Below, piece after piece: positions 16,805 to 61,857 of a stretch of DNA of 64,000 bases. Location: assembly GCF_016907475.1 (NCBI RefSeq), contig NZ_JAFBCA010000001.1, forward strand, positions 620,001 to 684,000. Direction: 5' to 3'. Source of the stretch: Nocardioides cavernae. GTDB lineage: Bacteria > Actinomycetota > Actinomycetes > Propionibacteriales > Nocardioidaceae. Numbering within the stretch: the first letter of the stretch is position 1; every line of letters begins with the position of its first letter. The notes under the pieces are model-generated. The model saw only the letters and a program-made list of their open reading frames with translations, did no database searches and was not told the DNA's origin. Position numbers and translations under genes: made by a program.

Positions 16805-17210
16805 AAGGGTCTCCTCGACGAGAGGTGGTGCGGGCAACGAGCGGCTGCACGCGGGCGGGAACCACACGCGTGCACGTGGGAAGTGCATCCTGCCACGCGC
16901 TGTCGAGCCCGCGGCAGGGTTCTCCCCAGAGTGAGGGCGGTCAGGTGTTTGCGGGAGATCGGACCAGTGTTGAGGTTCATAGTCGTCGTAGGGTCCGTGG
17001 AAAGTGTGGACAAGGAACGTTTGCGCAGGTCAGCGGCCGGTAAGCCTGTGGATGACAGGTGTGGACACTGATCGACGCCACTGGCGTGAGGTGTGGACGG
17101 CGTCGCGGTTCGTGTCGTTCGTCCCGATGAGTGCACAGGGGCTGGGGACGACGCGGCGGACCGAACCACAAGTTCTCCACACACCGAGCACCTCGCCGGC
17201 GGTTCGGACG
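16805..17210. other. oriC: origin of replication oriC (dnaN-dnaA spacer)
   Basis: This 406-base gap has no gene and carries a DnaA-box cluster. TGTGGACAA (17005-17013) and TTCTCCACA (17173-17181) fit the consensus; TGTGGATGA (17047-17055) and TGTGGACAC (17060-17068) differ at one base; TGTGGACGG (17092-17100) at two. A 21-base element at 17018-17038 recurs upstream of dnaA and dnaB. The spacer between dnaN and dnaA is the standard origin position in actinobacteria. The stretch around 16970-16990 (GTTGAGGTTCATAG) is relatively AT-rich and may include the unwinding site. The boundaries are those of the spacer, not proven ends. Confidence 0.85.
17018..17038 (+). repeat. origin-associated 21-base element, copy A
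   Basis: Begins CGTTTGCGCAGGTCAGCG and continues for three more bases (GCC). It starts four bases after a perfect DnaA box and is identical over 21 bases to 61837-61857 upstream of dnaB. Confidence 0.75.
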
Positions 17211-18674
17211 TCAGGCCTGGCGGGCCTGCATCTTCACGCGGTTGGTGAGCTCGCTGACCTGGTTGAAGACTGCGCGGCGCTCGGCGAGAAGCTGGCGGAT
17301 CTTGCGGTCGGCGTACATCACCGTCGTGTGGTCGCGGCCGCCGAACTCGCGTCCGATCTGCGGGAGCGACATCGAGGTGAGCTCGCGACACAGGTACATG
17401 CCGATCTGGCGGGCCATCACCAGGTGCCGCCCGCGGGAGGGGCCGGTGAGGTCCTCGAGCGAGACGCCGAAGTAGGCGGCGGTCTGGGCGATGATCAGCG
17501 CGTGCGTGATCTCGGGCTCGCCGCCCTCGGGGATCAGGTCCTTGAGCACGATCTCGGCCAGGGTCATGTCGACCTCCTGGCGGTTGAGGTTGGCGAACGC
17601 CGTCACCCGGATCAGCGCGCCCTCGAGCTCGCGGATGTTGGTCTGGATCTTCGACGCGATGAACTCGAGCACGTCCGGCGGCGCCGTGAGCCGGTCCATC
17701 GCGGCCTTCTTGCGCAGGATCGCGATGCGGGTCTCGAGGTCCGGCGGCTGGACGTCGGTGATGAGGCCCCACTCGAACCGGTTGCGCAGCCGGTCCTCCA
17801 GCGCCTCGAGCCGCTTGGGCGCGCGGTCGGAGGTCAGCACGATCTGCTTGTTGGCGTTGTGGAGGGTGTTGAACGTGTGGAAGAACTCCTCCTGGGTCTG
17901 CGTCTTGCCCTCGAGGAACTGGATGTCGTCGATCAGCAGGACGTCGACATCGCGGTAGCGGCGCTTGAACCGGTCCTGCCGGTCGTCGCGGATCGCGTTG
18001 ATGAACTCGTTGGTGAACTCCTCGCTGGAGACGTAGCGCACCTTGGCGTTGCTGTAGAGGCTGCGCACGTAGTGGCCGATCGCGTGCAGGAGGTGGGTCT
18101 TGCCCAGGCCTGACTCCCCGTAGACCAGGAGCGGGTTGTAGGCCTTGCCCGGTGCCTCGGCGACGGCCACGGCAGCGGCGTGCGGGAACCGGTTGGACGA
18201 GCCGATGACGAAGGTCTCGAAGGTGTACTTCGGGTTGAGGCGGGTCTCCAGGGCCGAGGGCCGGCGCTCGCCGCTGACGCCGACCGGCTCGTGCGGCTCG
18301 ATCGTGACCGGAGCGGGGGGCTCGTACGCCGTCTGGATGTTTGTCGACAAAGAGACAGATCGATCTGTCGATTCGTCGATGTGCGGCTGGGCCTCCGCCT
18401 CGAGCGCCGGGTTGACCGTCACGAGCATCCGGATCTCGCGACCGAAGCCCTCGGTCAGCGCGTCCTCGATGTGGTTGCGCAGCCGGCCCTCGAGCTGGTT
18501 GCGGGTGAAGTCGTTGGGCACGGCGATGATCGCCGTGTTCTCGTGCAAGGTCATCGGGACGCTCGGTCGCAGCCAGGCCCGCTGGTTGGGCTGGAGGTCC
18601 TCGACGATCTGCTGCCACGCCGTCCCGAGATCTACCTGCTGATCGTCCACCCGGACCGCCTTCGCTTCCACCAT
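17211..18674 (-). CDS. dnaA: chromosomal replication initiator DnaA
   Basis: AAA+ initiator that binds DnaA boxes at oriC and opens the duplex. Domain I is at the N-terminus ([20 protein letters not shown]); the linker domain II covers about residues 90-150; the AAA+ domain has Walker [14 protein letters not shown] and Walker [14 protein letters not shown]; domain IV ends with the DNA-binding signature [14 protein letters not shown]. It has 487 residues from the ATG at 18674. Residues 99-112 are encoded by an AT-richer palindromic repeat also found at 24624, read in frame through the linker. The transcript points toward oriC, as is standard. Confidence 0.98.
18341..18372. repeat. palindromic repeat inside dnaA, copy 1
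   Basis: Contains the palindromes TTGTCGACAA and GACAGATCGATCTGTC. It matches 24624-24655 at 28 of 32 positions. Inside dnaA it is read in frame as part of [14 protein letters not shown] in linker domain II, with codons such as TCT, TTG, ACA and GAT that are rare in the neighbouring genes. Confidence 0.7.
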
Positions 18675-18833
18675 GTCGTCGTGCTCGTGTGCTGCTCTGG
18701 ATCCGGCCTCGCAGGGGCGGCGCCACCGATGTGACCGGTGAGGCTTCCACAGAGTTGTCCACAAGCTGTGAACTGCCGGGCCCGATCCGTGGGATCAGAC
18801 CCCCACGGCCGCAACGGCTGGTGATCCTTCCAG

Positions 18834-18854
18834 CGTTTCCGCAGGTCAGAGACC
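18834..18854 (+). repeat. origin-associated 21-base element, copy C
   Basis: CGTTTCCGCAGGTCAGAG and three further bases; 18 of 21 positions match the oriC copy. The nearest perfect DnaA box is about 70 bases away, at 18755. Confidence 0.6.
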
Positions 18855-19007
18855 GATTCGAGCGGTCTGTGACCCAGATCACATGGCGTGCTGGACCCTG
18901 GTCGGACCGGGGTCGGGACGGACCGCGGAGGCCTTGAACGTAACAACCGGTGGAGGCGTGGAGCAAGATGTCATCCACAGGCAGGCCAGCAGGGGCGGCT
19001 CGTGGGT

Positions 19008-19037
19008 TTGACCCCCACTTCGCCCGCCGCGTACCGT
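19008..19037 (+). promoter_or_regulatory. rpmH operon promoter
   Basis: TTGACC (19008-19013), an 18-base spacer and TACCGT (19032-19037), which fits a housekeeping actinobacterial promoter. It would give a leader of about 135 bases before rpmH. Confidence 0.55.
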
Positions 19038-19178
19038 TGGCCGGTCGCTCCCCGTCGACGGGTGCCGCATGTCCACGATCCGCCGCCTGGCGGCCGCGCG
19101 GACGGGCGGTCCCGGTTGAACGACCAGCACTGACGCCGTGTGGAGTGGACATCCCTCGAAACCTTCGGAGAAATAGCC

Positions 19179-19316
19179 GTGAGCAAGCGTACGTACCAGC
19201 CGAACAACCGTCGCCGTCACAAGGTGCACGGCTTCCGCCTGCGCATGCGGACCCGTGCCGGCCGCGCCATCCTGTCGGGCCGACGCCGCAAGGGCCGCAA
19301 GAGCCTGGCCGTCTGA
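19179..19316 (+). CDS. rpmH: 50S ribosomal protein L34
   Basis: Very basic 45-residue ribosomal protein of the large subunit: [18 protein letters not shown] at the start and RKGRKSLAV at the end, a full match in length and pattern to bL34. The GTG at 19179 has GGAG nine bases upstream. It heads the rpmH-rnpA-yidD-yidC-jag-rsmG block, the conserved right arm of the origin region. Confidence 0.98.
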
Positions 19317-19341
19317 CGGCCAGAGCCCGCGGCACACGCCG

Positions 19342-19695
19342 TTGCTCTCCGCTGTCCACCGCCTCACCACCGCTGACGGTTTCCGCCGCACGGTGCGTCA
19401 GGGGCGACGCGCCGGTTCGACGACCCTCGTGGTCCACCTGTGGGTGGACCGGGACGCGGCACCGGCGCCGGCGCAGGTGGGGTTCACGGTCGGCAAGGCT
19501 GTCGGCAACGCCGCCACGCGAAACCGTGTGAAGAGACGACTTCGGCACCTGACCCGGGAACACCTCGCTGCACTCGAGGAGCTCCCGGGTCGTGCTGCGC
19601 TCGTGGTTCGTGCCCTGCCGGCCGCATCCGAGGCGTCGTACGCCTCCCTCGGTGCCGACCTCGCCCGTACCCTGAGCAGGGTGAGCTCGCCATGA
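19342..19695 (+). CDS. rnpA: ribonuclease P protein component
   Basis: Protein subunit of RNase P, which matures tRNA 5' ends. The RnpA signature [11 protein letters not shown] is present, preceded by [19 protein letters not shown] at 19342 ([16 protein letters not shown]) gives 117 residues, the normal length; the frame remains open upstream but only over rpmH sequence. The gene begins 25 bases after rpmH and its stop overlaps the yidD ATG (ATGA). The start codon choice rests on family N-termini and is less certain than the gene itself. Confidence 0.96.
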
Positions 19696-19952
19696 AACAC
19701 CTCCTCATCGGCTTCATCCGCGCGTGGCGCTTCGCGATCAGCCCGCTCTACGGCCAGGTCTGCCGTTACCACCCGAGCTGCTCGGCGTACGCCCTCGAGG
19801 CCGTCACCGAGCACGGCTCGATCCGCGGCACCTGGCTCGCCGTACGCCGTCTCTCCCGCTGCCACCCGTGGGCCGCCGGCGGCTACGACCCCGTTCCCCC
19901 CCGCGCCGGATCGGCCGGCCAGTCCACGTCCACTGCAACTCGAGGAGCATGA
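19692..19952 (+). CDS. yidD: membrane protein insertion efficiency factor YidD
   Basis: An 86-residue YidD protein. Conserved features are [14 protein letters not shown], the cysteine-containing [15 protein letters not shown] and [17 protein letters not shown]. It aids insertion of inner-membrane proteins together with YidC. The ATG overlaps the rnpA stop and the stop codon is followed immediately by the yidC start, so translation is probably coupled along the operon. Confidence 0.96.
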
Positions 19953-20924
19953 GTGCTCGACTTCTTCAGCACCATCGGCGGCGCGATCATGGCGCCGCTC
20001 TACTACGTCATCTCGGCGGTGCTGGTCGGCTTCCACAAGCTGTTCGGCTCGGTGTTCGGCCCGGAGACCGGGATCGCGTGGGTGCTGTCGATCATCGGGC
20101 TGACGCTCGTGATCCGCATGGCGTTGATCCCGTTGTTCGTCAAGCAGATCAAGTCCAGCCGCAACATGCAGCTCATCCAGCCCAAGGTGCGCGAGCTGCA
20201 GAAGAAGTACGGCCACGACCGTGAGCGTCTCGCGCAGGAGACGATGAAGCTCTACAAGGACTCGGGCACCAACCCGTTTGCGTCCTGCCTGCCGATCCTC
20301 CTGCAGATGCCGATCTTCCTGGCGCTGTTCCGCCTGATCGACCAGGCCGCGAAGAACCCTCAGGATCCCAAGGGCCTGATGACGGTCACGCTCAACGAGC
20401 AGTTCGGCGACGCGGTGTTCCTCGGCGCGAAGATCTCCGACACGTTCCTCAACACCGACGACATCGGCGTGCGGGTGCTCGCCGCCGTGCTGGTGCTCGC
20501 CATGACGGCGACGACGTTCCTCACCCAGCGCCAGCTGATGAGCAAGAACATGCCGGCCGATGCCCTCTCCGGCCCCTACGCCCAGCAGCAGAAGATGCTG
20601 CTCTACGTCCTCCCGGTCGTCTTCGCCGTCGGTGGTATCGCCTTCCCGATCGGTGTCCTCTTCTACTGGACCACGTCGAACCTCTGGACCATGGGCCAGC
20701 AGTTCTACGTCATCCGCAACAACCCGGCTCCCGGCACCCCCGCGGCTGCGGCCAAGGAGGACCGAGACCGGGCGAAGGCCGCTCGCAAGGGGCAGAAGAC
20801 TCCCGCGCAGATCGAGGAGGAGCGCCTCGCCGCCGAGGCCGAGGCCCGCCGCGCGGAGAAGTCGGACACCCGCCAGCAGCCCCAGCGGCAGTCCAAGTCC
20901 CAGCGCAGCAAGAAGAAGCGCTGA
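19953..20924 (+). CDS. yidC: membrane protein insertase YidC
   Basis: YidC/Oxa1 insertase that places proteins in the cytoplasmic membrane, alone or with SecYEG. The 323-residue gram-positive-type form has no large periplasmic domain. Helices lie at about 10-30, 45-65, 105-125, 175-195 and 220-250; the conserved positively charged groove is preceded by LTLVIRMALIPLFVKQIKSS. The C-terminal 60 residues are Lys/Arg/Gln rich (KSQRSKKKR), which in this family contacts the ribosome. The GTG at 19953 directly follows the yidD stop, with CGAGGAGC just upstream. Confidence 0.97.
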   Translation: MLDFFSTIGGAIMAPLYYVISAVLVGFHKLFGSVFGPETGIAWVLSIIGLTLVIRMALIPLFVKQIKSSRNMQLIQPKVRELQKKYGHDRERLAQETMKLYKDSGTNPFASCLPILLQMPIFLALFRLIDQAAKNPQDPKGLMTVTLNEQFGDAVFLGAKISDTFLNTDDIGVRVLAAVLVLAMTATTFLTQRQLMSKNMPADALSGPYAQQQKMLLYVLPVVFAVGGIAFPIGVLFYWTTSNLWTMGQQFYVIRNNPAPGTPAAAAKEDRDRAKAARKGQKTPAQIEEERLAAEAEARRAEKSDTRQQPQRQSKSQRSKKKR

Positions 20925-20989
20925 CCCAGACCTCCCTGACGACGCTCGCAAGGGTGTCGTCGCACCTGATCGAGAAGCAGGAGACGCAC

Positions 20990-21541
20990 GTGAGTGAGCA
21001 GTTGACAGACGGCGAGACCGTCGCCGAGACGACCGAGAACGACGAGCCGACCAGCGAGTCCACCGGCGCGGCACGACCTTCCAAGGTGCAGCGCCTCGAG
21101 CACGAGGGCGACATCGCGGCGGACTACCTCGAGGAGCTCCTCGACATCGCGGACCTCGATGGTGACCTCGACATGGACGTGGAGGGTGATCGAGCGAGCG
21201 TGCAGATCGGCGGCGCCGACCTGAGCCAGCTCGTCGGTCGCAACGGCGAGGTGCTGGAGGCGCTCCAGGAGCTCACCCGGCTCGCGGTCTACCGCGAGAC
21301 CGGCGAGCGGTCGCGCCTCATGCTGGACGTCGACGGGCACCGCGCGCAGCAGCGTGAGCGGCTCGTTGCCCTGGCCGAGACGTCGATCGCCGAGGTGAAG
21401 GAGTCCGGCGAGTCCGTGTCGCTGGAGCCGATGAGTGCGTTCGAGCGCAAGGTCGTCCACGACGCGGTGTCGGCTGCCGGCCTGACGTCGGAGTCCGAGG
21501 GCGCCGAGCCCAAGCGTCACGTGGTGATCCTCCCGGCGTGA
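20990..21541 (+). CDS. jag: Jag/KhpB KH-R3H RNA-binding protein
   Basis: RNA-binding protein of the Jag/KhpB group, often linked to cell-wall growth and YidC. The KH domain lies at about residues 45-110 (LVGRNGEVLEALQELTRLA with its GxxG-like loop GRNG) and the R3H domain at about 120-175 (LEPMSAFERKVVHDAV). The N-terminal 35 residues are acidic and disordered. The GTG at 20990 has CAGGAG seven bases upstream, preferred over a GTG at 20954. The stop overlaps the rsmG start by four bases. Confidence 0.94.
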   Translation: MSEQLTDGETVAETTENDEPTSESTGAARPSKVQRLEHEGDIAADYLEELLDIADLDGDLDMDVEGDRASVQIGGADLSQLVGRNGEVLEALQELTRLAVYRETGERSRLMLDVDGHRAQQRERLVALAETSIAEVKESGESVSLEPMSAFERKVVHDAVSAAGLTSESEGAEPKRHVVILPA

Positions 21542-22314
21542 GCGACGACGTTTCACGTGAAACCGGTGGGTCGAGTGGGCCCCCCGGGCCCGTATCGAGA
21601 CCACCCTCCGTGCCGCCCGAGGCGCGGAGGGTGTTCGCGTCCGACCGCCTCGCGCTAGCCGAGCGCTACACCGAGCTGCTGGCCACCGAAGGCGTCCTCC
21701 GCGGGCTGATCGGTCCCCGCGAGGCCCCGCGGCTGTGGGAGCGCCACGTCCTCAACTCGGCAGTGCTCGGTGAGGCGGTGCCGGACGGTGCTTCTGTCTG
21801 CGACGTCGGCACCGGCGCCGGTCTCCCGGGCCTGGTGCTGGCGATCGCCCGGCCGGACCTCGCGGTGACACTGGTGGAGCCGCTTCTGCGACGTACGACG
21901 TTCCTCGACGAGGTCGTGGCGGAGCTGGAGCTCAGCCACGTGACGGTCGTGCGCGGTCGTGCCGAGGACCTGCACGGCACGGCGACCTTCGACATCGTCA
22001 CCTCGCGTGCCGTCGCCCCTCTCGAGCGGCTGCTCGGCTGGTCGATGCCGCTCGTGTCCCCCACTGGCGCGACGGTGGCCATGAAGGGTCGCTCGGTCCA
22101 CGACGAGATCGCGGAGACGCGGGGCTTCTTGTCCACGTGGCGTTGCGGCGAGCCCGAGGTCTTCGAAGTGGGCGCCGGACTGCTTGATCCCCCCACCACG
22201 GTGGTGCGGGTGCCGTGGGCCGACCCATCCCGGATAGGTTGGCCCCTTGCCCGGAATCCCAAGCGGCGCCCCGGGCGTCGGGACCGTTCTGCGGTCGAGC
22301 GAGAGGTGAGCTGA
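21538..22314 (+). CDS. rsmG: 16S rRNA (guanine-N7) methyltransferase RsmG
   Basis: Methylates G527 (Escherichia coli numbering) of 16S rRNA; loss can give low-level streptomycin resistance. The SAM-binding motif is CDVGTGAGLPGLVLAI, followed by VTLVEPLLRRTTFL and the later ATVAMKGRS. It has 258 residues from the GTG at 21538. Residues 5-9, VSRET, are encoded by a parS site. The last 20 residues are basic. parA begins two bases after the stop. Confidence 0.96.
   Translation: MSDDVSRETGGSSGPPGPVSRPPSVPPEARRVFASDRLALAERYTELLATEGVLRGLIGPREAPRLWERHVLNSAVLGEAVPDGASVCDVGTGAGLPGLVLAIARPDLAVTLVEPLLRRTTFLDEVVAELELSHVTVVRGRAEDLHGTATFDIVTSRAVAPLERLLGWSMPLVSPTGATVAMKGRSVHDEIAETRGFLSTWRCGEPEVFEVGAGLLDPPTTVVRVPWADPSRIGWPLARNPKRRPGRRDRSAVEREVS
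21550..21563. promoter_or_regulatory. parS site 1
   Basis: Perfect 14-base core GTTTCACGTGAAAC near the start of rsmG. ParB binds such sites to load onto DNA and spread. It is read as VSRET in the RsmG N-terminus. Confidence 0.93.
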
Positions 22315-22315
22315 G

Positions 22316-23455
22316 TTGAGCCAGGGCCCTAGTGACGACATGGGTTGGCGCAGCACGGGTAGTGACCCGTACCCGTTTTCCACCGCTCAGGAGGGCACCC
22401 CTGAGCGGGGATATCCACAGGATGGACCGCTTCATCCACAGGACGGGGAGCGCGCAGCTGTTTCACGTGAAACACCGACTGGCGATGTTTCACGTGAAAC
22501 TCGACCCGCCTGGCAGGTGCGAACCGCCGGCGAGCTCGCAGGTCAGGACAACGACTTCGCCGACCAGGGCACGCCCCTGGCGCAGGCAGCCCAGCACTCG
22601 GTCCTGGCGCGCACCGGCGGCCTGCGGAGGCAGGGCGTACCCCGTCCGGACGGCACGAGGGTGCTCGTCGTCGCCAACCAGAAGGGCGGCGTCGGCAAGA
22701 CCACCTCGACGGTCAACGTGGCTGCCGGCCTGGCGCAGCTCGGCCAGAAAGTCCTGGTCATCGACCTCGACCCGCAGGGCAACGCCTCGACGGCCCTCGG
22801 GATCGAGCACCACCGCGGGGTGCCGTCGACGTACGACATGCTCGTCGAGGGCGCTCCCCTCGCGGACGTGATGACCGAGTCGGCCGACCTCCCGGGCCTG
22901 TGGGTGGTCCCGGCGACGATCGACCTGGCCGGCGCCGAGATCGAGCTCGTCAGCGTGGTCGCGCGCGAGCAGCGGCTCGACCGTGCGATCGCCGCCCACC
23001 CTCTCGTCGGCAGCGCGGCTGAGATCGGTGAGGACCGCTTCGACTACGTCCTCGTCGACTGCCCCCCGTCGCTCGGGCTCCTCACGCTCAACGCGCTGGT
23101 CGCCGGTCGCGAGATGTTCATCCCGATCCAGGCGGAGTACTACGCCCTCGAGGGACTCGGCATGCTCCTCGAGACCGTCGAGATGGTGCGCCAGCACCTC
23201 AACCCACGCCTGGTCATCTCCACGATCCTGCTCACGATGTACGACGCCCGCACCCGTCTCGCCGCCGGCGTGGCCGACGAGGTCCGTGGCCACTTCGGTG
23301 ACCAGGTCCTCAAGACGGCGGTGCCGCGGTCGGTCCGTGTCTCGGAGGCGCCGTCCTACGGCCAGACCGTGATGACCTACGATCCGGCGTCGGCGGGAGC
23401 GCTCTCCTACCTGGAGGCCGCCCGCGAGATCGCCAGCAAGGGAGCGCCCGCATGA
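22316..23455 (+). CDS. parA: chromosome partitioning ATPase ParA
   Basis: Deviant-Walker ATPase that moves ParB-parS complexes to segregate origins. KGGVGKTT is at residues 123-130; the switch regions are [13 protein letters not shown] and [11 protein letters not shown]. The first 115 residues are a non-conserved extension that contains two parS sites, both read as VSRET (residues 49-53 and 58-62). The start taken is the TTG at 22316, two bases after rsmG, with AGAGG upstream; the ATG at 22340 is possible, and a start after the parS sites cannot be excluded. parB follows after 13 bases. Confidence 0.95.
22459..22474. promoter_or_regulatory. parS site 2
   Basis: Perfect 16-base consensus TGTTTCACGTGAAACA within the 5' part of parA. 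Confidence 0.96.
22486..22501. promoter_or_regulatory. parS site 3
   Basis: TGTTTCACGTGAAACT, 15 of 16 consensus bases, 11 bases beyond parS site 2 and on the same helical face to within about two bases. Confidence 0.93.
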
Positions 23456-23468
23456 ACGAGGTCATGGC

Positions 23469-24464
23469 ATGAGCAGCAACGCACCGCGGCGCGGCCTGGG
23501 GCGCGGCCTCGGGTCGCTGATCCCGACCGCTCCCAGCCAGCCTCTCCCGCCGCCGGCCGCGGCGGGCCCGGCCCCGTCCCCGGATGGCCCGAACGACCCG
23601 GCCACGATTGCCGCCTCTGCAAACGGGTCGCAGGCCGTGGACGGCACCGGCGCCGGCGCCTACTTCGCGGAGCTGCCCATCGCGCAGGTCCGTCCGAACG
23701 CCCGCCAGCCGCGGCAGGTCTTCGAGGAGGAGGCGCTCGCCGAGCTGGTGCACTCGATCCAGGAGGTCGGCCTCCTGCAGCCCGTCGTCGTACGCCGCAC
23801 CGGCGAGGACGCGTACGAGCTGATCATGGGCGAGCGTCGGTGGCGCGCCTCCCAGCAGGCCGGTCGCGACACGATCCCCGCGATCGTGCGCGAGACCGAT
23901 GACGACGACATGCTCCGCGACGCGCTGCTGGAGAACCTCCACCGCTCGCAGCTCAACCCGCTCGAGGAGGCCGCCGCCTACGGCCAGCTGCTCGAGGACT
24001 TCGGCTGCACCCACGACGAGCTGGCCCAGCGCATCGGCCGCTCGCGGCCGCAGATCTCCAACACGCTGCGGCTGCTGAAGCTGTCCCCCGCCGTCCAGCG
24101 TCGCGTTGCAGCCGGCGTCCTCTCCGCCGGGCACGCCCGTGCGCTCCTGTCCGTCGACGACGCCGGTCTCCAGGACAAGCTCGCGGCCCGGGTCACCGCG
24201 GAGGGCATCTCCGTACGTGGACTGGAAGAGATCGTCTCGCTGCGCACCGAGGAGGAGTCAGCTCCGCGCGTCCTGCGCCGGAAGCCCGTCGCCCCCGGCC
24301 TCGACGAGCTGGGAGAGCGTCTCTCCGACCGCTTCGAGACTCGCGTCAAGGTCGACCTCGGCAAGGCGAAGGGCAAGATCACGGTCGAGTTCGCCAGCCT
24401 CGACGACCTACGTCGGATCGTCGACATCATGGACCCGCGCAACCGCAACGACCGCCCCATCTGA
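23469..24464 (+). CDS. parB: chromosome partitioning protein ParB
   Basis: CTP-dependent DNA clamp that loads at parS. The N-terminal ParA-interaction patch [12 protein letters not shown] is at residues 7-18; the CTP-binding motif GERRWRA is at 121-127, followed by [19 protein letters not shown]; the helix-turn-helix is [22 protein letters not shown]; the C-terminal dimer domain ends the protein at residue 331. It follows parA by 13 bases. A hairpin is found ten bases after the stop. Confidence 0.98.
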
Positions 24465-24473
24465 GCCGCGCAG

Positions 24474-24498
24474 CCGACCGCGAGGCACGAGCGGTCGG
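24474..24498 (+). terminator. hairpin after parB
   Basis: CCGACCGC / GCGGTCGG, eight base pairs with a nine-base loop, ten bases after the parB stop and between convergent genes. Confidence 0.5.
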
Positions 24499-24512
24499 TG
24501 TGGGCGCGGCCA

Positions 24513-24566
24513 GGTAGTGCAAGCGACACGGCGGAGCGAAGCGAGGCCGTACGAGCGCGTCGAAAC
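24513..24566. repeat. dispersed intergenic repeat, copy 2
   Basis: Degenerate member of the GGTYGAGTRGC-GTAYCGARACC family: starts GGTAGTGCAAGC, ends GCGTCGAAACC and holds an internal ACGGC/GCCGT stem. It lies between parB and the convergent acyltransferase. Confidence 0.4.
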
Positions 24567-24623
24567 CCCCTGGGGCGGGAAGAACCCCTGAGGGCGACGC
24601 GTGGATCACGGCATCCACGCTCA

Positions 24624-24655: not shown

Positions 24656-24671
24656 GAATCGACGAAGCAAC

Positions 24672-54040: not shown

Positions 54041-54080
54041 GGCAGTGTGACGGCACGGTCGACATGGATGTTCCGGACAT

Positions 54081-54121
54081 GACGAAGGGGCCGACGGTGT
54101 CGCCACCGCCGGCCCCTCGTC
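54081..54121 (-). terminator. terminator after subtilase gene
   Basis: GACGA-A-GGGGCCG-A-CGGTG pairs with its complement over nearly 18 bases with a four-base loop, 22 bases beyond the subtilase stop. Confidence 0.7.
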
Positions 54122-54143
54122 ATGTAGAGAGGTGAGGATCAGG

Positions 54144-57100
54144 TCACTTCTTCGCGACCTTGATCTTCAGCCGGTCCTTGGACCCGAGCACCGCGGCGTC
54201 ACCGAGGTACTCGACCTTGACCTTGATGTTGCCGATCTTCCGGGCCTTCGGCAGCACGAGCTGCGCCTTGCCGAACCGGTTGAGCGTCAGCGTCCAGGTC
54301 TGCTTCTCCAGCGCGCCCTTGACGGTGACCTCCACCGTGCCGGTGGGCGTCACCTTCGGGGCGGACACGGCGATCTTGAGCTTGGCCTTCTTGCCCTGCT
54401 CGACCACCTTCGGAGCGTCCACCTCGAGACGAGACTTCACCTTCGGTGCGGGCGCCTGGGGCGCCTTCACCACGAGGTTGGTCGGAGCCGAGGTGGCTGC
54501 GGCGCTGGTGGTGTTGCCGAGGTACGTCGCCGTCACCGGGTAGGTCCCGGCGGTGGCGAAGCCGGTGAGCGAGGCCGTGGCCTTGCCGGCGGCGTCGAGC
54601 GGCGCGCTGGTGACCATGCGGTCACCGGCCCAGAACTCGACCCTGCCCTCCGGCGTGACCGGACCCGTGCTGAAGACCTGCGCCGAGGCGGTGGTCGAGC
54701 CGCCGGTCTCGATCGTCGTCGGGTCGAGCGAGAGCGCCACGTTGGTGCTGACGGCCGAGCCCTTGATCTTCACGGTGTGGGTCGCCGACACCGGCTTGGC
54801 GCCGGGGTCGTCGGTCGTGTGGACGACCTTGTTGGTCAGCGCCTTGTCACCGACCGTCGGGTCGACCGTCACCTGGTAGCTGAAGCTCGCACCCTCGGCC
54901 TGCGGCTCGGAGTAGGTGGCGCAGACGTTGAGTCCGTCCTCGAGGACGGCGCTCGCGTCACCCTTGTTGACCAGGGAAGCACCGACGGTGCCCTGGGCGT
55001 TCTCCGTGCCGATCGTGGCGCCGTCCAGGATGGCACCCGCCTCGACGTTGTCGTAGGCGAACACGAGGTCGTTGCTGCCGGTGAAGGCGAAGACCTCCAT
55101 GTCCAGCGACCCCTCCGCCCCGGTCTCGTCGTCGTACAGGCGCATGCCGTCGTACTCGACAACAGCGACCTGGGCGCCGGCGGTTGCCAGGGAGATGCCG
55201 GTGTTGGCGTCCTCGTCGTAGAAGATCTGCATGTCCTGCCACAGCAGGGCGGCGAGGTTGTTCGGCGCAAGGGCGTCAGGCACGGCCTGCGGTGCCCACG
55301 GGCGGCCGGCGTAGCCGGAGCCGTAGGCCAGGAACCCGTCGTCGCTGAACCGCAGGCCGTTGTAGGCCTCGCCGTAGAAGCCGTACTGGCGGGTCCCGAA
55401 GGCCGTGTAGCTGACCGTGTCACCGGTCTCCTCGTCGAACCCGATCTCCGGGTCCGTCGTGATGGCGCCGTCGCTGACCTCGTAGAGGTCGACGTAGCCG
55501 GGGCCGAACGGCGTCTGGCACGAGGGGTCCTGCTTGCTCGTGGTCAGCGTGTAGTTGCCCTCCTCGCCGTAGGTCGACCCCAGGGTGCCGCTCCACGACA
55601 CCACACCGTCGGCGAAGGTGGCGTCGTCGGTGGCGGAGCCCTCGACGTACGTCGTGCCTTCCGGCAGTGCGTCGGTGATGGAGTAGGTCAGGTCCTCCTG
55701 GGAGACGTTGGGCGCGACGTCGACGGTGTAGGTGATCGTGTCACCGGGAGCCGCCTCCTCCACGTCCGCGGACTTGGTCACGTCGTCGGCGACCCGGGTG
55801 ACGGTCACGGGGACGACCCCGATGTCGCCCTTGGTGGCCGGGGAGGTGCCCAGGGTCAGCGTGCCGTGCCAGACCTCGCCGGCGTCCATCTCGCTCTCGT
55901 CCCAGAAGGTGCGGATCTCGAACGGGGTGGCCGCAGGAACGGCGCCCTCGGGGCCTTCGGCCCGGAGGTTGCCCTGGTCGCCTGCGACGACCGCGGTCAC
56001 CAGGTCGGTGGTGTCAGCAGCACCGGCCGCCGACGCCTCCCAGTTCTGCACGAGGACCCAGTAGGTGCCCGGCTCCGGGTTCGCGATCTCGACCGCCTCG
56101 TTCGAGCCCGCGCTGGCGCTCATGGCGATCTCGTTGGCCGCGGACACGGCGCCCGTCCCGACGTACATGTCGAAGTCGGGGGCAGTCGGGTTCTCCAGCT
56201 TCGCGATGAGGCTGGTGGCGCCGGCGGGGACCTCGATCATCTCGACGTGCGTGCCGTTGCCGTCGTAGGCGTCGGTGTTGGTGGTGTCCTCCACGATCGA
56301 CAGCGTGGTGCTGGCCTCGGGAACCAGGCCGCTCGCGTCGACCTGCAGGTCGGTGATGGCGATCGCCTCAAGGTCCTCGGTCACCTGCGACCCGGCGTCA
56401 CGACGTGTCGTGATGTCGATCGCGGACGGGAGCACACCGGCCGAGGGCAGCACGCCCACGGGGAGGTGGGCGACCGGGGCCTCGGAACCGGCGGGCGGGG
56501 TGAGCACCAGGGTGCCGAAGAGCCACTCGTCGGTCGCGACACCGGAGTCGAGCGTCGCAGTGACGGCGACGTCAGCCGTGCCGCCATCGGTCAGCTCGAT
56601 CGAGTCCACGTCGGCGTCGAGGGTGATGCCCTCCGAGATGTCCTCCACCGAGACGGTCCAGGTGCCGGCACCGGTCGAGGTGCCGGTGAAGGTGCGCGTC
56701 CAGTCACAGGTCTGCAGGCACTCGTCGTCGGCCATGCTGGCCGTGTTGAGGTCGCGGACGTCGCCGCCCTTGGCCGGGTCGGCGCCCTGGTAGCCCGCGA
56801 GGTCCTCGTCGAGGACGAGGCCCGCCTTGGCGGCGCGGCGCAGCTCGATGCGGCCCGAGCCCATGTCGAACCAGTCGGCGACGGTGCCGTCGGAGTCGGT
56901 GATGTCCCGCTCCGCGGTCGTCATGAGGGCGGACTGGGCCTCGGCCGGGCTCCACTGCTCGGCTGCCGGCACGTCGAGCTGCATGCCCTTCAGGAGCGCC
57001 AGGGCGCCTGCGGTGTGCGGGCTGGCCATCGAGGTGCCGGAGATGAAGTGCCACTCGACGCTGTTCTTCGTGCCGGCGGCGGCGAGGATGTCCACGCCCG

Positions 57101-58874
57101 GCGCCGAGACCGACGGGCTGATCGAGGACACCGCACGGTTGGGTCCGCGGCTGGAGAAGGCGGCCATGATGTCGCCGTTGGCGTCCTTGACGTCCGCGAG
57201 GGAGCCGGACAGGGCTGCCTTCGTGCCCGCGTGGGCGACGATGAACGCCTTCAGCGCGACGCCGTCGGCGTAGGTGATGTGCGCGGCCGGGAGGGCGTGC
57301 GCGTCACCGTTGAGGGAGGTGCCGCTGGCCTGGTCGTTGGCCAGGATCATGCCCTCGGCGCCGAGCTCGGCGAGGTTCTCGCCCTTCTCCACGCGGCCGT
57401 TGCCACCGCGGTCGCAGATGACGATGAGGCCCGACAGGTCCGTGCCCGCCGGGAAGGCGCCGACAGGAGTCTCGTCGTCGGGCTGGCTGCACCGGGCGTT
57501 GTTGTAGGGCGCGGAGCCCGCGTAGACGACCGGGAACGCGCCGTCGGTGGCGCCGGCCAGTCCGGCACCGGCGATGTCGGGCATGGTGGCCGCGTCGGTG
57601 GCGGTGATGCCGGTGACGGAGGCGACGTACTTGCGGTCGTGCGTGGTGGCACCGACCGTCGTCATCCACGGGACGTCTCCGGGGCTGCCGAGCGTGGCGG
57701 CACCGGGGCCGTCGTTGCCGGCGGAGGTGGCGACGTGGATCCCGGCGGCGCGGGCGTTGAGGAAGCCCACGGCGTCGGCGTCGGACCACGGGCTGGACGC
57801 GGCGCTGGAGCCGATGGAGTAGTTGATCACGTCGACGCCGTCGAGGATCGCCTGGTTGATGGAGGCGAGGATCGAGTAGCCCTGGCAGCCGCCGTCGCAG
57901 ACGTCGTAGCCGATGATGTTGGCGTGGGGCGCGACGCCCTTGATGGTGGAGGTCACCGAGAACTCGTGCTCGGTGCCCTTCGCGGAGTACGCCGTGGCCT
58001 CGACCTGGTTGCCGGCGGTCGTGCTGCCGGTGTGGCTGCCGTGGCCGTCGTCGTCGTACGGGTCGTCCTTCGGGTTGCCGCTGGTGGCGGGGTTCTCGAA
58101 GTTGTAGTAGCCGATCAGCTTGTCGTTGCAGCCCCAGTTCGCGACGTACTGCGCGGTGTTGGCCGGGTCGCACATGCCGAGGTACTTGCCGGCGCCGAGG
58201 GGGTTGGTGTGGTCGTAGCCGTCGCCACCGTCCTCGACGGGAACCGTGTCCGCGAAGGACGGGTTGGCCGGGTTCAGGCCGGAGTCGAGGATGCCGACGA
58301 TGACGCCCTCACCCTTGTTCCCCTCGAAACCCGCCGGCACGTTCGAGCCGTCCCAGACCGTCGGCGCACCGATCCACTCGGGCCCCTTGTCGGTCGTGAG
58401 CTGGCGCTCGAAGTCGACCTGGACGGCCGAGACGCCGTCGATCCGCGCGACCTCCTGGGCCTGCGTGCGGGTCAGCTGCACGGCGATGCCGTTGATCGCC
58501 TCGGTGTAGCGGTAGAGCACCTTGGCCGAACCGCCCGTCACCCGGGAGATCGAGGAGACGAGGTCGGCCTGCTCGGCCTTCAGCTCCTTGCGGTAGCCGG
58601 ACTCGGAGCCGGATGCGGCGGTGAGGCTGCGGTCCTGGGCCTGGTCGCGCGTGGGCACGGCCGGGGCCTCGAGCTGGACGATGTAGGTCTCGGCCTTGCT
58701 GCCGGTGCCCAGCTCGAGCACGGTCCCCTTGTCGAGGGCCTGGGCCGGCGATGCCTTGGCCGGCTTGAGCTGGCCGGGGTCGATGTCGGCTGCGTTGGCA
58801 GCCGTCCCCCACGGCACGAGTAGTGCGGCAGCGACGCTGGTGGCAGCGCCGGCCGCAACGGTACGACGGATCAC
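54144..58874 (-). CDS. large secreted S8 subtilisin-like protease
   Basis: Exported serine protease of 1576 residues. A signal peptide (TVAAGAATSVAAALLVPWGT...ANA) and an I9-type propeptide (ETYIVQLEAPAVP) precede the S8 domain, whose triad is Asp in VGILDSGLNP, His in DDDGHGSHTGS and Ser in ISGTSMASPHTAG, with the oxyanion Asn in TSAGNDGPG. A PA-like insertion sits between His and Ser. Beta-rich domains follow, including a DUF11-like module (SYSITDALPEGTTYVEGSA-like) and two Ig-like modules at the C-terminus (TPEGRVEFWAGD; TPTGTVEVTVKGAL). GTG 58874 has GGGAG six bases upstream. No sorting signal is seen, so it is probably released or held non-covalently. Confidence 0.93.
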   Translation of the reverse strand: MIRRTVAAGAATSVAAALLVPWGTAANAADIDPGQLKPAKASPAQALDKGTVLELGTGSKAETYIVQLEAPAVPTRDQAQDRSLTAASGSESGYRKELKAEQADLVSSISRVTGGSAKVLYRYTEAINGIAVQLTRTQAQEVARIDGVSAVQVDFERQLTTDKGPEWIGAPTVWDGSNVPAGFEGNKGEGVIVGILDSGLNPANPSFADTVPVEDGGDGYDHTNPLGAGKYLGMCDPANTAQYVANWGCNDKLIGYYNFENPATSGNPKDDPYDDDGHGSHTGSTTAGNQVEATAYSAKGTEHEFSVTSTIKGVAPHANIIGYDVCDGGCQGYSILASINQAILDGVDVINYSIGSSAASSPWSDADAVGFLNARAAGIHVATSAGNDGPGAATLGSPGDVPWMTTVGATTHDRKYVASVTGITATDAATMPDIAGAGLAGATDGAFPVVYAGSAPYNNARCSQPDDETPVGAFPAGTDLSGLIVICDRGGNGRVEKGENLAELGAEGMILANDQASGTSLNGDAHALPAAHITYADGVALKAFIVAHAGTKAALSGSLADVKDANGDIMAAFSSRGPNRAVSSISPSVSAPGVDILAAAGTKNSVEWHFISGTSMASPHTAGALALLKGMQLDVPAAEQWSPAEAQSALMTTAERDITDSDGTVADWFDMGSGRIELRRAAKAGLVLDEDLAGYQGADPAKGGDVRDLNTASMADDECLQTCDWTRTFTGTSTGAGTWTVSVEDISEGITLDADVDSIELTDGGTADVAVTATLDSGVATDEWLFGTLVLTPPAGSEAPVAHLPVGVLPSAGVLPSAIDITTRRDAGSQVTEDLEAIAITDLQVDASGLVPEASTTLSIVEDTTNTDAYDGNGTHVEMIEVPAGATSLIAKLENPTAPDFDMYVGTGAVSAANEIAMSASAGSNEAVEIANPEPGTYWVLVQNWEASAAGAADTTDLVTAVVAGDQGNLRAEGPEGAVPAATPFEIRTFWDESEMDAGEVWHGTLTLGTSPATKGDIGVVPVTVTRVADDVTKSADVEEAAPGDTITYTVDVAPNVSQEDLTYSITDALPEGTTYVEGSATDDATFADGVVSWSGTLGSTYGEEGNYTLTTSKQDPSCQTPFGPGYVDLYEVSDGAITTDPEIGFDEETGDTVSYTAFGTRQYGFYGEAYNGLRFSDDGFLAYGSGYAGRPWAPQAVPDALAPNNLAALLWQDMQIFYDEDANTGISLATAGAQVAVVEYDGMRLYDDETGAEGSLDMEVFAFTGSNDLVFAYDNVEAGAILDGATIGTENAQGTVGASLVNKGDASAVLEDGLNVCATYSEPQAEGASFSYQVTVDPTVGDKALTNKVVHTTDDPGAKPVSATHTVKIKGSAVSTNVALSLDPTTIETGGSTTASAQVFSTGPVTPEGRVEFWAGDRMVTSAPLDAAGKATASLTGFATAGTYPVTATYLGNTTSAAATSAPTNLVVKAPQAPAPKVKSRLEVDAPKVVEQGKKAKLKIAVSAPKVTPTGTVEVTVKGALEKQTWTLTLNRFGKAQLVLPKARKIGNIKVKVEYLGDAAVLGSKDRLKIKVAKK

Positions 58875-58969
58875 ACGGATCTCCCGTTCGGAATGAAGTG
58901 GGCCCACTGCACGACGACGCGCCCCCAAAATGAATGCGTACGGCGTGCGGGCAGAGAGTGAACAGGTGT

Positions 58970-58999
58970 ATCTGAAGTCACAGGAGCCGTACCTGTCAA
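58970..58999 (-). promoter_or_regulatory. candidate promoter of subtilase gene
   Basis: A perfect -35 TTGACA (58994-58999) with TCAGAT (58970-58975) 18 bases on, or AGATAC two bases earlier, on the minus strand. The leader would be about 90 bases. Confidence 0.4.
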
Positions 59000-59063
59000 C
59001 GAAAAGATCTACCGAAGTTCCTGCGTTAACCGAGACGTAACGCGGGAGGGCGTCCGGCGGTGG

Positions 59064-60224
59064 TCAGCGTCGGCCGGTGCGGTTGGCGGCGGGGAACCGG
59101 TTGGGACGTGCGACGACGCCGTCCAGGACGACCGGCCTGGCGCTCAGCGACTCGATGACGATCCGTCCGGCGCGGAGGCCGGAGTAGCGGTCGATGACGA
59201 CGAGCTGCTTCATCGCCGCCTTCGGGCCGGCGAGGTCCACGACGTGCCAGTCGCGCTTGCCGACGCGCACCCGCACCTTGCCGTGGCCACGGCCGGTGGC
59301 GGCGAGCAGCCGGAGCTCGCCCACCGTCGTCCGGGGCAGCACGAGGCGCGCGCCGCGTCGGGACGCCTTGATCGCGTCGCCGCGGAAGTAGCCGGGGCCG
59401 GTCACCTTCGCCCAGCCGCGCTGCCGGGTCAGGTTCCGCGGCACGAAGAACTCGATGGGCTCCGACCAGGCGCTCGCGTTGCCGGCGGGGTCGACGGTGC
59501 GCGCGGAGAAGCGGTGCCGCCCGGCGGTGGGGTCGGGCAGCTCCCAGCGGCCGCCGCCCGTGCACGCAACGGGCCGGTCGTTGTCGGTGCACTCGAAGCC
59601 CGAGCCCGCCTCGCTGCTGTTGAGCCGGATCGGCACGCCCGCGCCATTGACGACCGGCTGGGTCGGGGTGATCTCGTCGTAGGAGGTGCCGGTGACGAAG
59701 ACGAAGGGCGCGCGGGTGTCCTGTCCCCAGGTGAAGGTCGCCGGCGTGGGGTCCTCGTCGGGGGTGTCCGCCACGGTGGGCGGCAGCAGCGGGGCGGTGT
59801 CGGGGGTGCGGCCGCGGTCGCCGAGGTCGGCGGCGCGGGCCTCGAGGACGTAGCCCCCGGCCGCGGCGTCGGGCAGGTCGGCGTACGTCACCGGGCTGGT
59901 GCAGGCGCGCCAGTCGTGGGCCTGCGGCCCGCCGGTCAGCCGGCACTCGAGCCCGAAGGGGCCCTGGTCGCCGTCGGTGACCTGCCACCCGAGGGTGAAG
60001 GTCATCGACGACACGGTCACCAGCCCGGCGGCGTTGGGTGCGGGGGAGGCCGTCAGCGTGGTCTCGGGGGGCAAGCTGTCGTCACAGCCGTTCTGCAGGA
60101 CGCTCGGCGCGGTCTCGTCGACGCAGCCCGGGGTGGCGCCGGCCGGGGCCGCGGCCAGCGGCACCAGGCCACTGCCCAGCAGTGCCAGCACGGCCAGCCG
60201 GCTCGCGGTGCGGTGTCGAAGCAT
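59064..60224 (-). CDS. secreted beta-rich protein of unknown function
   Basis: A 386-residue exported protein: signal peptide (ASRLAVLALLGSGLVPLAAAPAGA), then a region with paired cysteines (LECRLTGGPQAHDWRACTSP and FECTDNDRPVACTGG) resembling bacterial Ig-like or chitinase-A-N modules (FSARTVDPAGNASAWSEP), and a basic C-terminal half with repeated beta strands (GKVRVRVGKRDWHVVDLAG). No catalytic motif is recognised. The ATG at 60224 has GGGAGGA upstream. It neighbours the subtilase on the same strand with 189 bases between, and may be a cell-surface or matrix protein. Confidence 0.75.
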   Translation of the reverse strand: MLRHRTASRLAVLALLGSGLVPLAAAPAGATPGCVDETAPSVLQNGCDDSLPPETTLTASPAPNAAGLVTVSSMTFTLGWQVTDGDQGPFGLECRLTGGPQAHDWRACTSPVTYADLPDAAAGGYVLEARAADLGDRGRTPDTAPLLPPTVADTPDEDPTPATFTWGQDTRAPFVFVTGTSYDEITPTQPVVNGAGVPIRLNSSEAGSGFECTDNDRPVACTGGGRWELPDPTAGRHRFSARTVDPAGNASAWSEPIEFFVPRNLTRQRGWAKVTGPGYFRGDAIKASRRGARLVLPRTTVGELRLLAATGRGHGKVRVRVGKRDWHVVDLAGPKAAMKQLVVIDRYSGLRAGRIVIESLSARPVVLDGVVARPNRFPAANRTGRR

Positions 60225-60270
60225 GGGTCCTCCCTCGTGTCCGGCGCGCTCCCGGGGCGCCCTCACCGGG

Positions 60271-61608
60271 TCAACGAGCGGCGGTGGCTCCGGTCACGAG
60301 CCACCGGTCGCCGCGTGCGCGCCACGAGAGCAGCACGCCGCGGGCGCCCATGAACACGATGGTCATCGCGACCCAGACCGCGACCAGCCCGTGGGGGAGC
60401 GTGGCCGCCCAGAGCGCGGCTGGTGCGTACGCCGCCAGCACGACCAGGCCGGCCCACGCGAGGTAGGCGCCGTCGCCGGCGCCGATGAGCACCCCGTCGA
60501 GGACGAAGACCATCCCGGCGACCGGTTGCCCGATCGCGGCGACGAGCAGCACCGGCACGAGCAGGTCGCGCACCGCGGGGTCGGTGGTGAAGAGCGCGCC
60601 GATGAACGGGGACACGGCGGCCAGGGCGAGCCCGGCGACGATCCCGCTGCCCCAGCCCCACTGCACCATCCGGCGGGTGAGGCGGCGGGTGCCCTCGACG
60701 TCGCCGCTGCCCAGCGCCCGGCCGGTGAGGGCCTGGGCGGCGATCGCGATCGCGTCGAGGCCGAAGGCGAGGAAGCTCCAGAGGGTGATCGCGATCTGGT
60801 GGGTGGCGATGTTGACGTCGGTGGCTCCGGTGCCGACGCGGGTCACGGCGTACGTCCCGACGAGGAGGCAGGCCCGCAGTGCGAGGGTGCGGACGACGAG
60901 CGCGACGGCGGCGTGCGCGGCGGCCGCGATGCCGGCGCGGTCCGGGCTCAGGGGAGCGTCGTGCTCCCGGGCGGCGCGGACCACGACGACGAGGAACCAC
61001 AGCGCGCTGATCACCTGGGCGAGGACCGAGCCGATGGCGGACCCGGCGATCCCGAGGTCGAGGCCGTAGACGAGCACGACGTTGAAGAGGATGTTGAGGC
61101 CGTTGCCCACGACCGCGACCAGCAGCGGCGTACGTGTGTCCTGCAGCCCGCGCAGCACCCCGGTCGCGGCCAGCATGACCAGCAGCGGGGTGGTGCCGAG
61201 GAAGGCGATGCCGAGGTAGGTCTCGGCGTGGTCGGCGACCTCGGCCCCGGTGTCGAAGACGCCGACCAGCGCCGGGGTGAGCGCGATGCCGCCGACGGTG
61301 GCGACCACCCCGATGATGACGGCGAGCCACACGCCGTCGACCCCCTGGGCGAGGGCGGCTCGGAGGTCGCCCGCGCCCAGGTGGCGGGCGACGCTGGCGG
61401 TGGTGCCGTAGGCGAGGAAGACGCACAGCCCGACGACCGTCTGGAGGACGACCGCGGCGACGCCGAGGCCCGCGAGCTCGGGCGTGCCGAGGTGGCCGAC
61501 GATGGCGGCGTCGGACAGCAGGAAGAGCGGTTCGGCGACGAGCGCGAGGAAGGCCGGGACGGCCAGGCGGAGGATCTCGCGGTCTGTCTCGCGGTGGTCG
61601 GCCTTCAC
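60271..61608 (-). CDS. MATE family efflux transporter
   Basis: Multidrug and toxin extrusion (MATE/DinF-like) transporter of 445 residues with about 12 helices in two halves; family segments are PLFLLSDAAIVGHLGTPELAG, GVLRGLQDTRTPLLVAVVGNGLNI and AIAAQALTGRALGSGD. It would export organic cations using Na+ or H+. The GTG at 61608 has a TAGGGT hexamer six bases upstream. A MATE gene just before dnaB is also found in Streptomyces, so this is the ancestral position. Confidence 0.93.
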   Translation of the reverse strand: MKADHRETDREILRLAVPAFLALVAEPLFLLSDAAIVGHLGTPELAGLGVAAVVLQTVVGLCVFLAYGTTASVARHLGAGDLRAALAQGVDGVWLAVIIGVVATVGGIALTPALVGVFDTGAEVADHAETYLGIAFLGTTPLLVMLAATGVLRGLQDTRTPLLVAVVGNGLNILFNVVLVYGLDLGIAGSAIGSVLAQVISALWFLVVVVRAAREHDAPLSPDRAGIAAAAHAAVALVVRTLALRACLLVGTYAVTRVGTGATDVNIATHQIAITLWSFLAFGLDAIAIAAQALTGRALGSGDVEGTRRLTRRMVQWGWGSGIVAGLALAAVSPFIGALFTTDPAVRDLLVPVLLVAAIGQPVAGMVFVLDGVLIGAGDGAYLAWAGLVVLAAYAPAALWAATLPHGLVAVWVAMTIVFMGARGVLLSWRARGDRWLVTGATAAR

Positions 61609-61614
61609 AGGTTC

Positions 61615-61620
61615 ACCCTA
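61615..61620 (-). promoter_or_regulatory. -10 element, leaderless, MATE gene
   Basis: TAGGGT on the minus strand, six bases before GTG 61608. Confidence 0.45.
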
Positions 61621-61836
61621 GGAACCCCGCAGACTTCGTCGATTGCGGGGCGACATAGCGACGGCTGTGCCTCGACGTACATAGCCCGATGGGACTACCT
61701 GTGTATGGCCGTGTGGATGACGCGTGTCCAACGCTGGTCGAGGCAGGGGAGGGGGCGAGCGGCGAGCATCCTCCAGATGGCGGACAGGTGAACGGACCCA
61801 GGGGCTGGGTATTTTTTGTCCACAGGGTGTGGGATG

Positions 61837-61857
61837 CGTTTGCGCAGGTCAGCGGCC
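61837..61857 (+). repeat. origin-associated 21-base element, copy B
   Basis: Identical over 21 bases to 17018-17038 in oriC, and extended by a shared GTA one base later; it starts 12 bases after a perfect DnaA box. Confidence 0.75.

What the first reader, a model, noticed from the sequence alone, without database searches (positions are those of the whole stretch)
17018..61857. A 21-base element shared by oriC, the dnaA upstream region and the dnaB upstream region
CGTTTGCGCAGGTCAGCG plus three bases is at 17018-17038 (oriC) and, identical over all 21 bases, at 61837-61857 (upstream of dnaB). A third copy at 18834-18854 (upstream of dnaA) matches 18/21. All are on the plus strand, and the first two lie 4 and 12 bases after a perfect DnaA box. 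A chance 21-base identity at two replication-initiation loci 45 kb apart is very unlikely. It could be the site of an unknown origin-binding regulator that coordinates initiator, helicase and origin.
Basis: seen in the sequence. Interest (0 to 1): 0.82.

Follow-up and report, generated by a model that had tools for sequence, protein, structure and literature searches.

The report
Phylum-wide IHF-like protein-binding DNA site
The 21-base match is real and belongs to a short one-directional DNA signal found in many actinobacteria and their phages and plasmids; at the replication origin and before the helicase gene it keeps a fixed distance from DnaA-binding sites, which suggests docking of a DNA-shaping protein that has yet to be identified.

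Summary

The element is not confined to three loci. Exact CGTTTNCGCAGGTCAG occurs in 196 of 394 class genomes (reversed control: one hit), on phages and on plasmids. It is not an ordinary repeat: at orthologous loci it keeps a rigid register with partner sites.
- oriC: TGTGGA-N7-element in 20 of 20 loci where the box pattern was found (of 30); same gap in two other families.
- dnaB: TCCACA-N12-element-N30/31-TCCACA; same layout in 29 of 29 scorable Streptomyces loci.
- dnaA: mostly 17/18 bp from a Crp-like palindrome.
- carD: distances to TTGAC cluster at 4, 15, 26, 37 bp, i.e. 11-bp steps.

Consensus is roughly nRWWWnYGCAGGTCAG. Best reading: the site of a widespread architectural protein doing IHF's jobs. 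Actinobacterial IHF leads, because the element lies 71-84 bp upstream of its gene in 4 of 4 examined genomes of one family; published in vitro work calls that protein's binding non-specific.

The parts
17018..17035 (+). Element copy 1, in the dnaA-dnaN gap (oriC)
   Evidence: Exact; conserved in genus relatives
17005..17013 (-). Perfect DnaA box TTGTCCACA beside copy 1; TGTGGA-N7-element spacing is fixed
   Evidence: 20 of 20 loci in which the pattern was found, of 30
17047..17068 (-). Two weaker DnaA-like boxes (TGTGGATGA at 17047; GTGTCCACA, 1 mismatch, at 17060) right of copy 1
18834..18851 (+). Element copy 3, upstream of dnaA
   Evidence: 3 or fewer mismatches in 20 of 26 genus loci
18868..18883 (.). 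Crp-like palindrome TGTGACCCAGATCACA, 18 bp from the 16-base element of copy 3; 17/18 bp spacing recurs in relatives
   Evidence: Read by eye; the name Crp-like is recalled
61837..61854 (+). Element copy 2, upstream of dnaB
   Evidence: 3 or fewer mismatches in 25 of 30 genus loci
61816..61824 (+). Perfect DnaA box; TCCACA-N12-element
61884..61889 (+). Second TCCACA, 31 bp after the 16-base element
61946..61968 (.). Two further perfect DnaA boxes in inverted orientation
17211..18674 (-). dnaA (start codon chosen by me)
   Evidence: Pfam Bac_DnaA 8.5e-77
15671..16801 (-). dnaN (start codon chosen by me)
   Evidence: Pfam DNA_pol3_beta domains
62135..63538 (+). dnaB (start codon chosen by me)
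   Evidence: Pfam DnaB_C 1.3e-105

Best explanation
The 21-mer is a copy of an asymmetric protein-binding site, about nRWWWnYGCAGGTCAG with weaker preferences after it, used widely in Actinomycetota and borrowed by their phages and plasmids. SHOWN: its sequence, distribution, and rigid or helically phased spacing to partner sites (DnaA boxes at oriC and dnaB, a Crp-like palindrome at dnaA, a -35-like TTGAC at carD). INFERRED: a DNA-bending or architectural protein docks there and shapes the DNA so that DnaA oligomers, RNA polymerase or a mobile element's own initiator assemble correctly; these are the jobs IHF does in E. coli at oriC, datA/DARS2, lambda cos and phased promoters.
For: Far above control: 196/394 class genomes with an exact copy against one reversed hit. 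Positional conservation: carD gap, 3 or fewer mismatches in 59/90 loci against 0/90 reversed; carD gap of family f7, core with 1 or fewer mismatches in 28/30 against 1/30; Streptomyces dnaB, 29 of 29 scorable loci at a fixed register with 0-3 core mismatches against 4-10 in control registers. Phasing: carD distances to TTGAC clustered at 4, 15, 26, 37 (54 loci; vector strength 0.97 at period 11); dnaB N12 with a second box at N30/31 in 22 of 24 composites; oriC N7. Company: within 60 bp 3' of tRNAs in 26 of 228 chromosomal hits; between the last gene and the end of a mycobacteriophage; upstream of a plasmid replication gene. Candidate reader: element 71-84 bp upstream of the actino_IHF match in 4 of 4 examined f59 genomes; in two of them it is the only genome-wide match to YRTTTNYGCAGGTCAGNG. 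66 of the 68 element-bearing phylum genomes have an actino_IHF match, all at E of 5.2e-31 or better; families with weak matches (e.g. f39, f54, f60, f63, f69, f74, f76, f84, f88) show no element (read by eye; shared ancestry and base composition confound this). mIHF depletion in M. tuberculosis lowers dnaA, dnaN and 23 of 45 tRNAs (PMC6155035, passages).
Against: No binding was shown here. Published: no common motif in 153 mIHF ChIP peaks (PMC6155035); msIHF binds M. smegmatis oriC, attB and a GC-rich control with equal KD of 0.25-0.27 uM (PMC10028186); mIHF binding described as non-sequence-specific (PMC3724605). Whether those fragments held the element is unknown. The window genome, the five Streptomyces-genus genomes examined and five of six f7 genomes lack a clear copy upstream of actino_IHF. 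Two element-bearing genomes (G614, G779; 81% and 84% complete) have no actino_IHF match, and many genomes with strong matches have no element. TTGAC phasing is seen only at carD, not at 202 other chromosomal hits. Families f29, f37 and f39 show no exact element in any drawn genome, and f37 and f8 none at carD. 30 of 228 hits fall in predicted CDS. Not every genus locus keeps the element (oriC 18/30).
Confidence: 0.62

Rival explanations
1. Site of a conventional global transcription factor (class I/II activator or repressor) of growth genes, unrelated to IHF.
For: carD distances to TTGAC clustered at 4/15/26/37 bp are what a face-of-the-helix activator gives; several neighbours read as housekeeping genes.
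Against: Copies in oriC with DnaA boxes, beside the last gene and end of a phage, near a linear plasmid end and in terminator-like hairpins are poor places for a promoter-only factor; both orientations relative to genes occur.
Confidence: 0.22
2. Polar roadblock: a bound protein stops transcription or replication forks at origins, gene ends and tRNA ends.
For: 26 of 228 hits within 60 bp 3' of a tRNA (20 opposite, 6 same strand); copies between transcription units.
Against: No single polarity: for CDS 3' ends within 60 bp, 28 same and 12 opposite, the reverse of the tRNA bias; for 5' ends 45 opposite and 22 same (many are carD). A roadblock needs no helical phasing with TTGAC or DnaA boxes.
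Confidence: 0.08
3. RNA-level element (terminator or processing hairpin).
For: Some tRNA and galE copies lie in inverted repeats.
Against: No complementary arm seen by eye at the window's oriC and dnaB copies or at carD; the carD copy lies between divergent genes on the far side of the -35-like TTGAC; no Rfam match except two tRNAs in the window.
Confidence: 0.03
4. Scar or remnant of a mobile repeat.
For: Dispersed, present on phages and plasmids; some copies beside genes that read as transposase or integrase.
Against: Same position and register at orthologous loci in many families.
Confidence: 0.02

Closest known systems
E. coli IHF-binding sites (oriC, datA, DARS2, lambda cosB, plasmid origins, phased promoters; cosB, plasmid and promoter roles recalled)
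   Same: Asymmetric site with an A/T tract beside a specific core, placed between or beside DnaA boxes and phased with promoters, shared by host, phage and plasmid. datA has one IHF site among DnaA boxes and lies downstream of a tRNA operon (PMC10950094, passages).
   Different: Core GCAGGTCAG is unlike the recalled IHF consensus WATCAAnnnnTTR; different phylum; reader unknown; E. coli IHF and actino_IHF lack sequence homology (PMC3724605, passage).
Actinobacterial IHF (actino_IHF, mIHF/sIHF; NF041260)
   Same: Widespread protein (354/396 genomes), bends DNA, depletion hits dnaA, dnaN and tRNAs; element upstream of its gene in family f59.
   Different: No sequence-specific site is reported in the passages read; binding described as non-specific.
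E. coli datA/DARS loci and the DnaA-box clusters near S. coelicolor oriC (Smulczyk-Krawczyszyn 2006, recalled, not read)
   Same: The dnaB-upstream composite is a DnaA-box cluster with a central architectural-type site, about 45 kb from oriC.
   Different: No evidence on DnaA-ATP turnover or titration; it also sits in front of dnaB and may be a plain promoter region.
Sal box / TTF-I terminator sites (recalled)
   Same: Non-palindromic, about 18 bp, high information, at gene ends and near promoters.
   Different: No consistent polarity here; no relation implied.

Membership tests
E. coli-type IHF site | Matches WATCAAnnnnTTR (recalled) | tested here: not met
   By inspection of the three window copies
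E. coli-type IHF site | Fixed placement relative to DnaA boxes or promoters | tested here: met
E. coli-type IHF site | Binding protein bends DNA at the site | not testable with these tools
   No binding data
actino_IHF target site | Taxonomic range of element and protein agree | tested here: inconclusive
   Protein in 354/396 phylum genomes; strict pattern in 68/396, 66 of which have the protein; G614 and G779 have the element but no match. The strict pattern misses degenerate sites such as the f7 carD copies
actino_IHF target site | Autoregulatory copy at its own gene | tested here: inconclusive
   f59 4 of 4 examined; overall 6/60 with 3 or fewer mismatches against 0/60 reversed; no clear copy in own genome or the five Streptomyces-genus genomes
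actino_IHF target site | Protein binds the element specifically | not testable with these tools
   Literature passages say non-specific
datA/DARS-like locus | DnaA boxes flanking an architectural-protein site | tested here: met
   TCCACA-N12-element-N30/31-TCCACA; that the site is bound is inferred
datA/DARS-like locus | Promotes DnaA-ATP hydrolysis or ADP release | not testable with these tools
   -
Dispersed mobile repeat (REP/MITE) | Copies not fixed at orthologous sites | tested here: not met
Known RNA family | Rfam match | tested here: not met
   Only two tRNAs in the window

The most novel reading that the evidence does not exclude
The element is the specific site of actinobacterial IHF that published assays did not find. 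This unrelated protein would have re-evolved E. coli IHF's regulatory layout: oriC with DnaA, a datA/DARS-like DnaA-box module in front of dnaB, the dnaA promoter, tRNA ends, its own gene, phage cos regions and plasmid origins.
Probability: 0.38. Interest if true: 0.9.

Novelty: new variant of a known kind. Interest (0 to 1): 0.78.

Why it matters
Whether actinobacteria have a sequence-specific architectural factor at oriC is open: mIHF was proposed but bound non-specifically in the assays read (PMC10028186, PMC6155035, passages). A conserved site with fixed spacing to DnaA boxes at oriC and dnaB, phased with TTGAC in the carD gap and shared with phages and plasmids, gives a concrete DNA bait and mutable positions. 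Full-text searches of the held open-access library for motif strings (one search listed 30 of 1,418 papers) showed no description of it; most subscription papers are not in that library.

Tried and rejected
Chance: rejected by shuffles and reversed-pattern controls. Ordinary repeat or mobile scar: rejected by positional conservation. RNA element: no Rfam match. Single-polarity roadblock: orientation counts disagree. Generality of TTGAC phasing: tested at 202 non-carD chromosomal hits, not found. Reader identification by flanking genes: the Pfam tally of 141 flanking ORFs (25 of 134 families shown) was led by cation efflux and epimerase, with CarD, DnaB, integrase and HTH domains further down, and no single regulator. 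In that call many carD flanks had been left out (141 of 217 listed refs, some of them duplicates, were used). The position rule had an off-by-one error and gave 0/30; corrected. In one search the loci were not oriented; redone. A PHROGs scan of viral neighbours was prepared but not run.

The window genus is called Nocardioides because named Nocardioides loci are its best matches; genus f22/g30 is called Streptomyces because its loci match named Streptomyces loci at up to 90%.

Chance caveat: 16 fixed bases in the 257-Gb genome collection give about 120 matches by chance (my arithmetic), and both collection scans stopped at 120 rows, so searches are not used for rates; 6 of the 120 genome titles are labelled with other phyla. 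The whole-genome searches with reversed controls carry the claim.
Full report
OBSERVATION. In the window the 18-mer with 3 or fewer mismatches has 3 matches against 0.18 expected. DnaA, DnaN and DnaB are confirmed by Pfam. All five exact TTGTCCACA boxes of the window lie at oriC, dnaA and dnaB. The nearest named loci are Nocardioides (dnaB protein 89% identical to L333; loci L002, L003, L006 match named Nocardioides at 83-87% DNA identity).

DISTRIBUTION. The genome holds six exact CGTTTNCGCAGGTCAG copies and ten with up to one mismatch. In a class-wide draw, 196 of 394 genomes have an exact copy, and the reversed pattern scored once; families f29, f37 and f39 have none. With a looser pattern, 68 of 396 phylum-wide genomes have one, including several families outside the class; reversed control, three hits. 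Of 228 distinct exact chromosomal hits, 30 lie in CDS predicted by my simple ORF caller and 26 lie within 60 bp 3' of a tRNA, 20 opposite and 6 on the same strand. A keyword scan places 43 beside carD. Other loci read from translations include lexA, rplM, mraZ/moxR, suf, tyrS ends, galE-cation efflux gaps and crgA; those names come from reading translations, not from a database. In 1.2 Mb of viral loci the core CGCAGGTCAG occurs 172 times against 5 for its reverse; those 120 loci were selected for at least one copy each. Several copies lie amid element-specific short repeats that look like iterons or operators (15 loci viewed). A 30-nt query hit 129 plasmid records, 91 of them Streptomyces (E-value limit 10, so some are chance). 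One copy is about 210 bp upstream of a replication-protein gene, one about 160 bp from a linear plasmid end. Mycobacteriophages of the Mutaforma13 type (cluster F, recalled) carry two tandem copies between the last gene, labelled terminase small subunit or HNH endonuclease, and the genome end.

REGISTER WITH PARTNERS. This is the core result. (a) carD gap: 90 loci; element with 3 or fewer mismatches in 59, from 25 families (reversed 0 of 90); none in the eight f37 and two f8 loci. Distance to the first TTGAC, found in 54 of the 59, is 4 (11 loci), 14-16 (26), 25-28 (13) or 37 (4), i.e. 11-bp steps; the offset from the carD start also falls mainly into two groups, 57-65 and 67-71. Vector strength is 0.97 at period 11; the loci are related, so the number of independent events is smaller. 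In family f7 (presumed Mycobacteriaceae) the 5' half is mostly CAACnn but the core stays, 28/30 against 1/30. (b) dnaB: 25 of 30 genus loci. TCCACA-N12-element (up to 4 mismatches) was found in 24 distinct loci of all fetched, 23 tagged dnaB, and 22 have a second TCCACA 30 or 31 bp after the element; three come from two other families, f6 (both dnaB) and f14 (not tagged). In the Streptomyces genus 29 of 30 loci were scorable and all 29 fit, with the next box pattern 27 bases from the core end, i.e. TCCACA at 30. (c) oriC: 18 of 30 genus loci with 3 or fewer mismatches (reversed 1 of 30). Where the box pattern was found (20 of 30) the gap is 7 bases every time; the same gap is seen in seven exact-hit loci of two other families, with TGGGGA in place of TGTGGA. 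(d) dnaA: 20 of 26 (4 short contigs dropped), with a Crp-like palindrome mostly 17 or 18 bp away (read by eye).

CONSENSUS. The 3' half, YGCAGGTCAG, is nearly fixed. The 5' half is mostly an A/T triplet, TTT or AAA, between variable bases: CGTTTn in the exact hits (selected for it), nRAAnn in Streptomyces dnaB; CAACnn in f7 carD is an exception. An A/T patch beside a specific core is what a DNA-bending protein would need; that step is inference.

WHO READS IT. Actino_IHF was chosen beforehand from the company the site keeps, then tested. It matches in 354 of 396 phylum genomes, and in 66 of the 68 that carry the element (the exceptions, G614 and G779, are 81% and 84% complete). All 66 have strong matches (E of 5.2e-31 or better), while families with weak matches show no element; this was read by eye, and shared ancestry or base composition could explain it. 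In three f59 genomes an exact element lies 71, 72 or 84 bp upstream of the match; a fourth f59 genome has one mismatch at 83 bp; in two of the four it is the only genome-wide match. Across 60 upstream regions, 6 have 3 or fewer mismatches against 0 reversed; for YGCAGGTCAGNG, 12 have 1 or fewer against 1. There is no clear copy in the window genome or the five Streptomyces-genus genomes. Published biochemistry goes the other way.

MECHANISM. A protein docks at GCAGGTCAG, bends or organises DNA over the adjacent A/T patch, and holds partners in register: DnaA at oriC and dnaB, RNA polymerase at the carD gap, phage or plasmid initiators and perhaps terminase elsewhere. The dnaB module resembles datA, where one IHF site lies among DnaA boxes next to a tRNA operon (PMC10950094). 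Whether it tunes DnaA, as datA and DARS do, or only dnaB transcription is unknown.

LITERATURE. Among the papers listed for motif strings I opened two: a phiJoe primer near attP containing CCGCAGGTCAGAGC (PMC5311408) and Rex operators (PMC5355995); the others look unrelated by title. Of all papers only listings or passages were seen.

Noticed in passing
window 18868-18883: Crp-like palindrome TGTGACCCAGATCACA upstream of dnaA, recurring in genus relatives mostly 17 or 18 bp from the element.
   Followed up: partly
One search hits, e.g. G007:C23:272258-274786, G456:C47, G032:C2, G452:C4, G462:C16, G135:C1, G006:C24, G035:C7: DnaB in several same-genus genomes matches in two pieces within one long open frame of about 855-979 aa, typical of an intein insertion.
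   Followed up: no
families f39, f54, f60, f63, f69, f74, f76, f84, f88: actino_IHF matches are much weaker in these families, and none of their genomes has the element; possible co-loss worth a proper test.
   Followed up: partly
G196 (f7/g88): Seven identical copies of CATTTCCGCAGGTCAGCG in one genome, perhaps carried by a repeated element.
   Followed up: no
L047, L048, L052: Inverted pair of elements flanking a tRNA-like 3' fragment (by eye) beside a gene that reads as an ISL3-type transposase, in same-genus genomes.
   Followed up: no
L094, L097, L099, L104, L108: Streptomyces galE/cation-efflux gap: the element core is paired with its own inverted core as a hairpin.
   Followed up: no
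NZ_CP109459 (L531): Annotation repeats with a 10,350-bp offset: the plasmid record looks like a head-to-tail dimer.
   Followed up: no
NC_041847 gp106 and the same gene in sister records: Same last gene labelled terminase small subunit in some records and HNH endonuclease in others.
   Followed up: no
window 22537-22546: A fourth core copy (CGCAGGTCAG), probably coding and without the A/T half.
   Followed up: partly
window 6588-6928: Two tRNA genes on the minus strand (Rfam).
   Followed up: no
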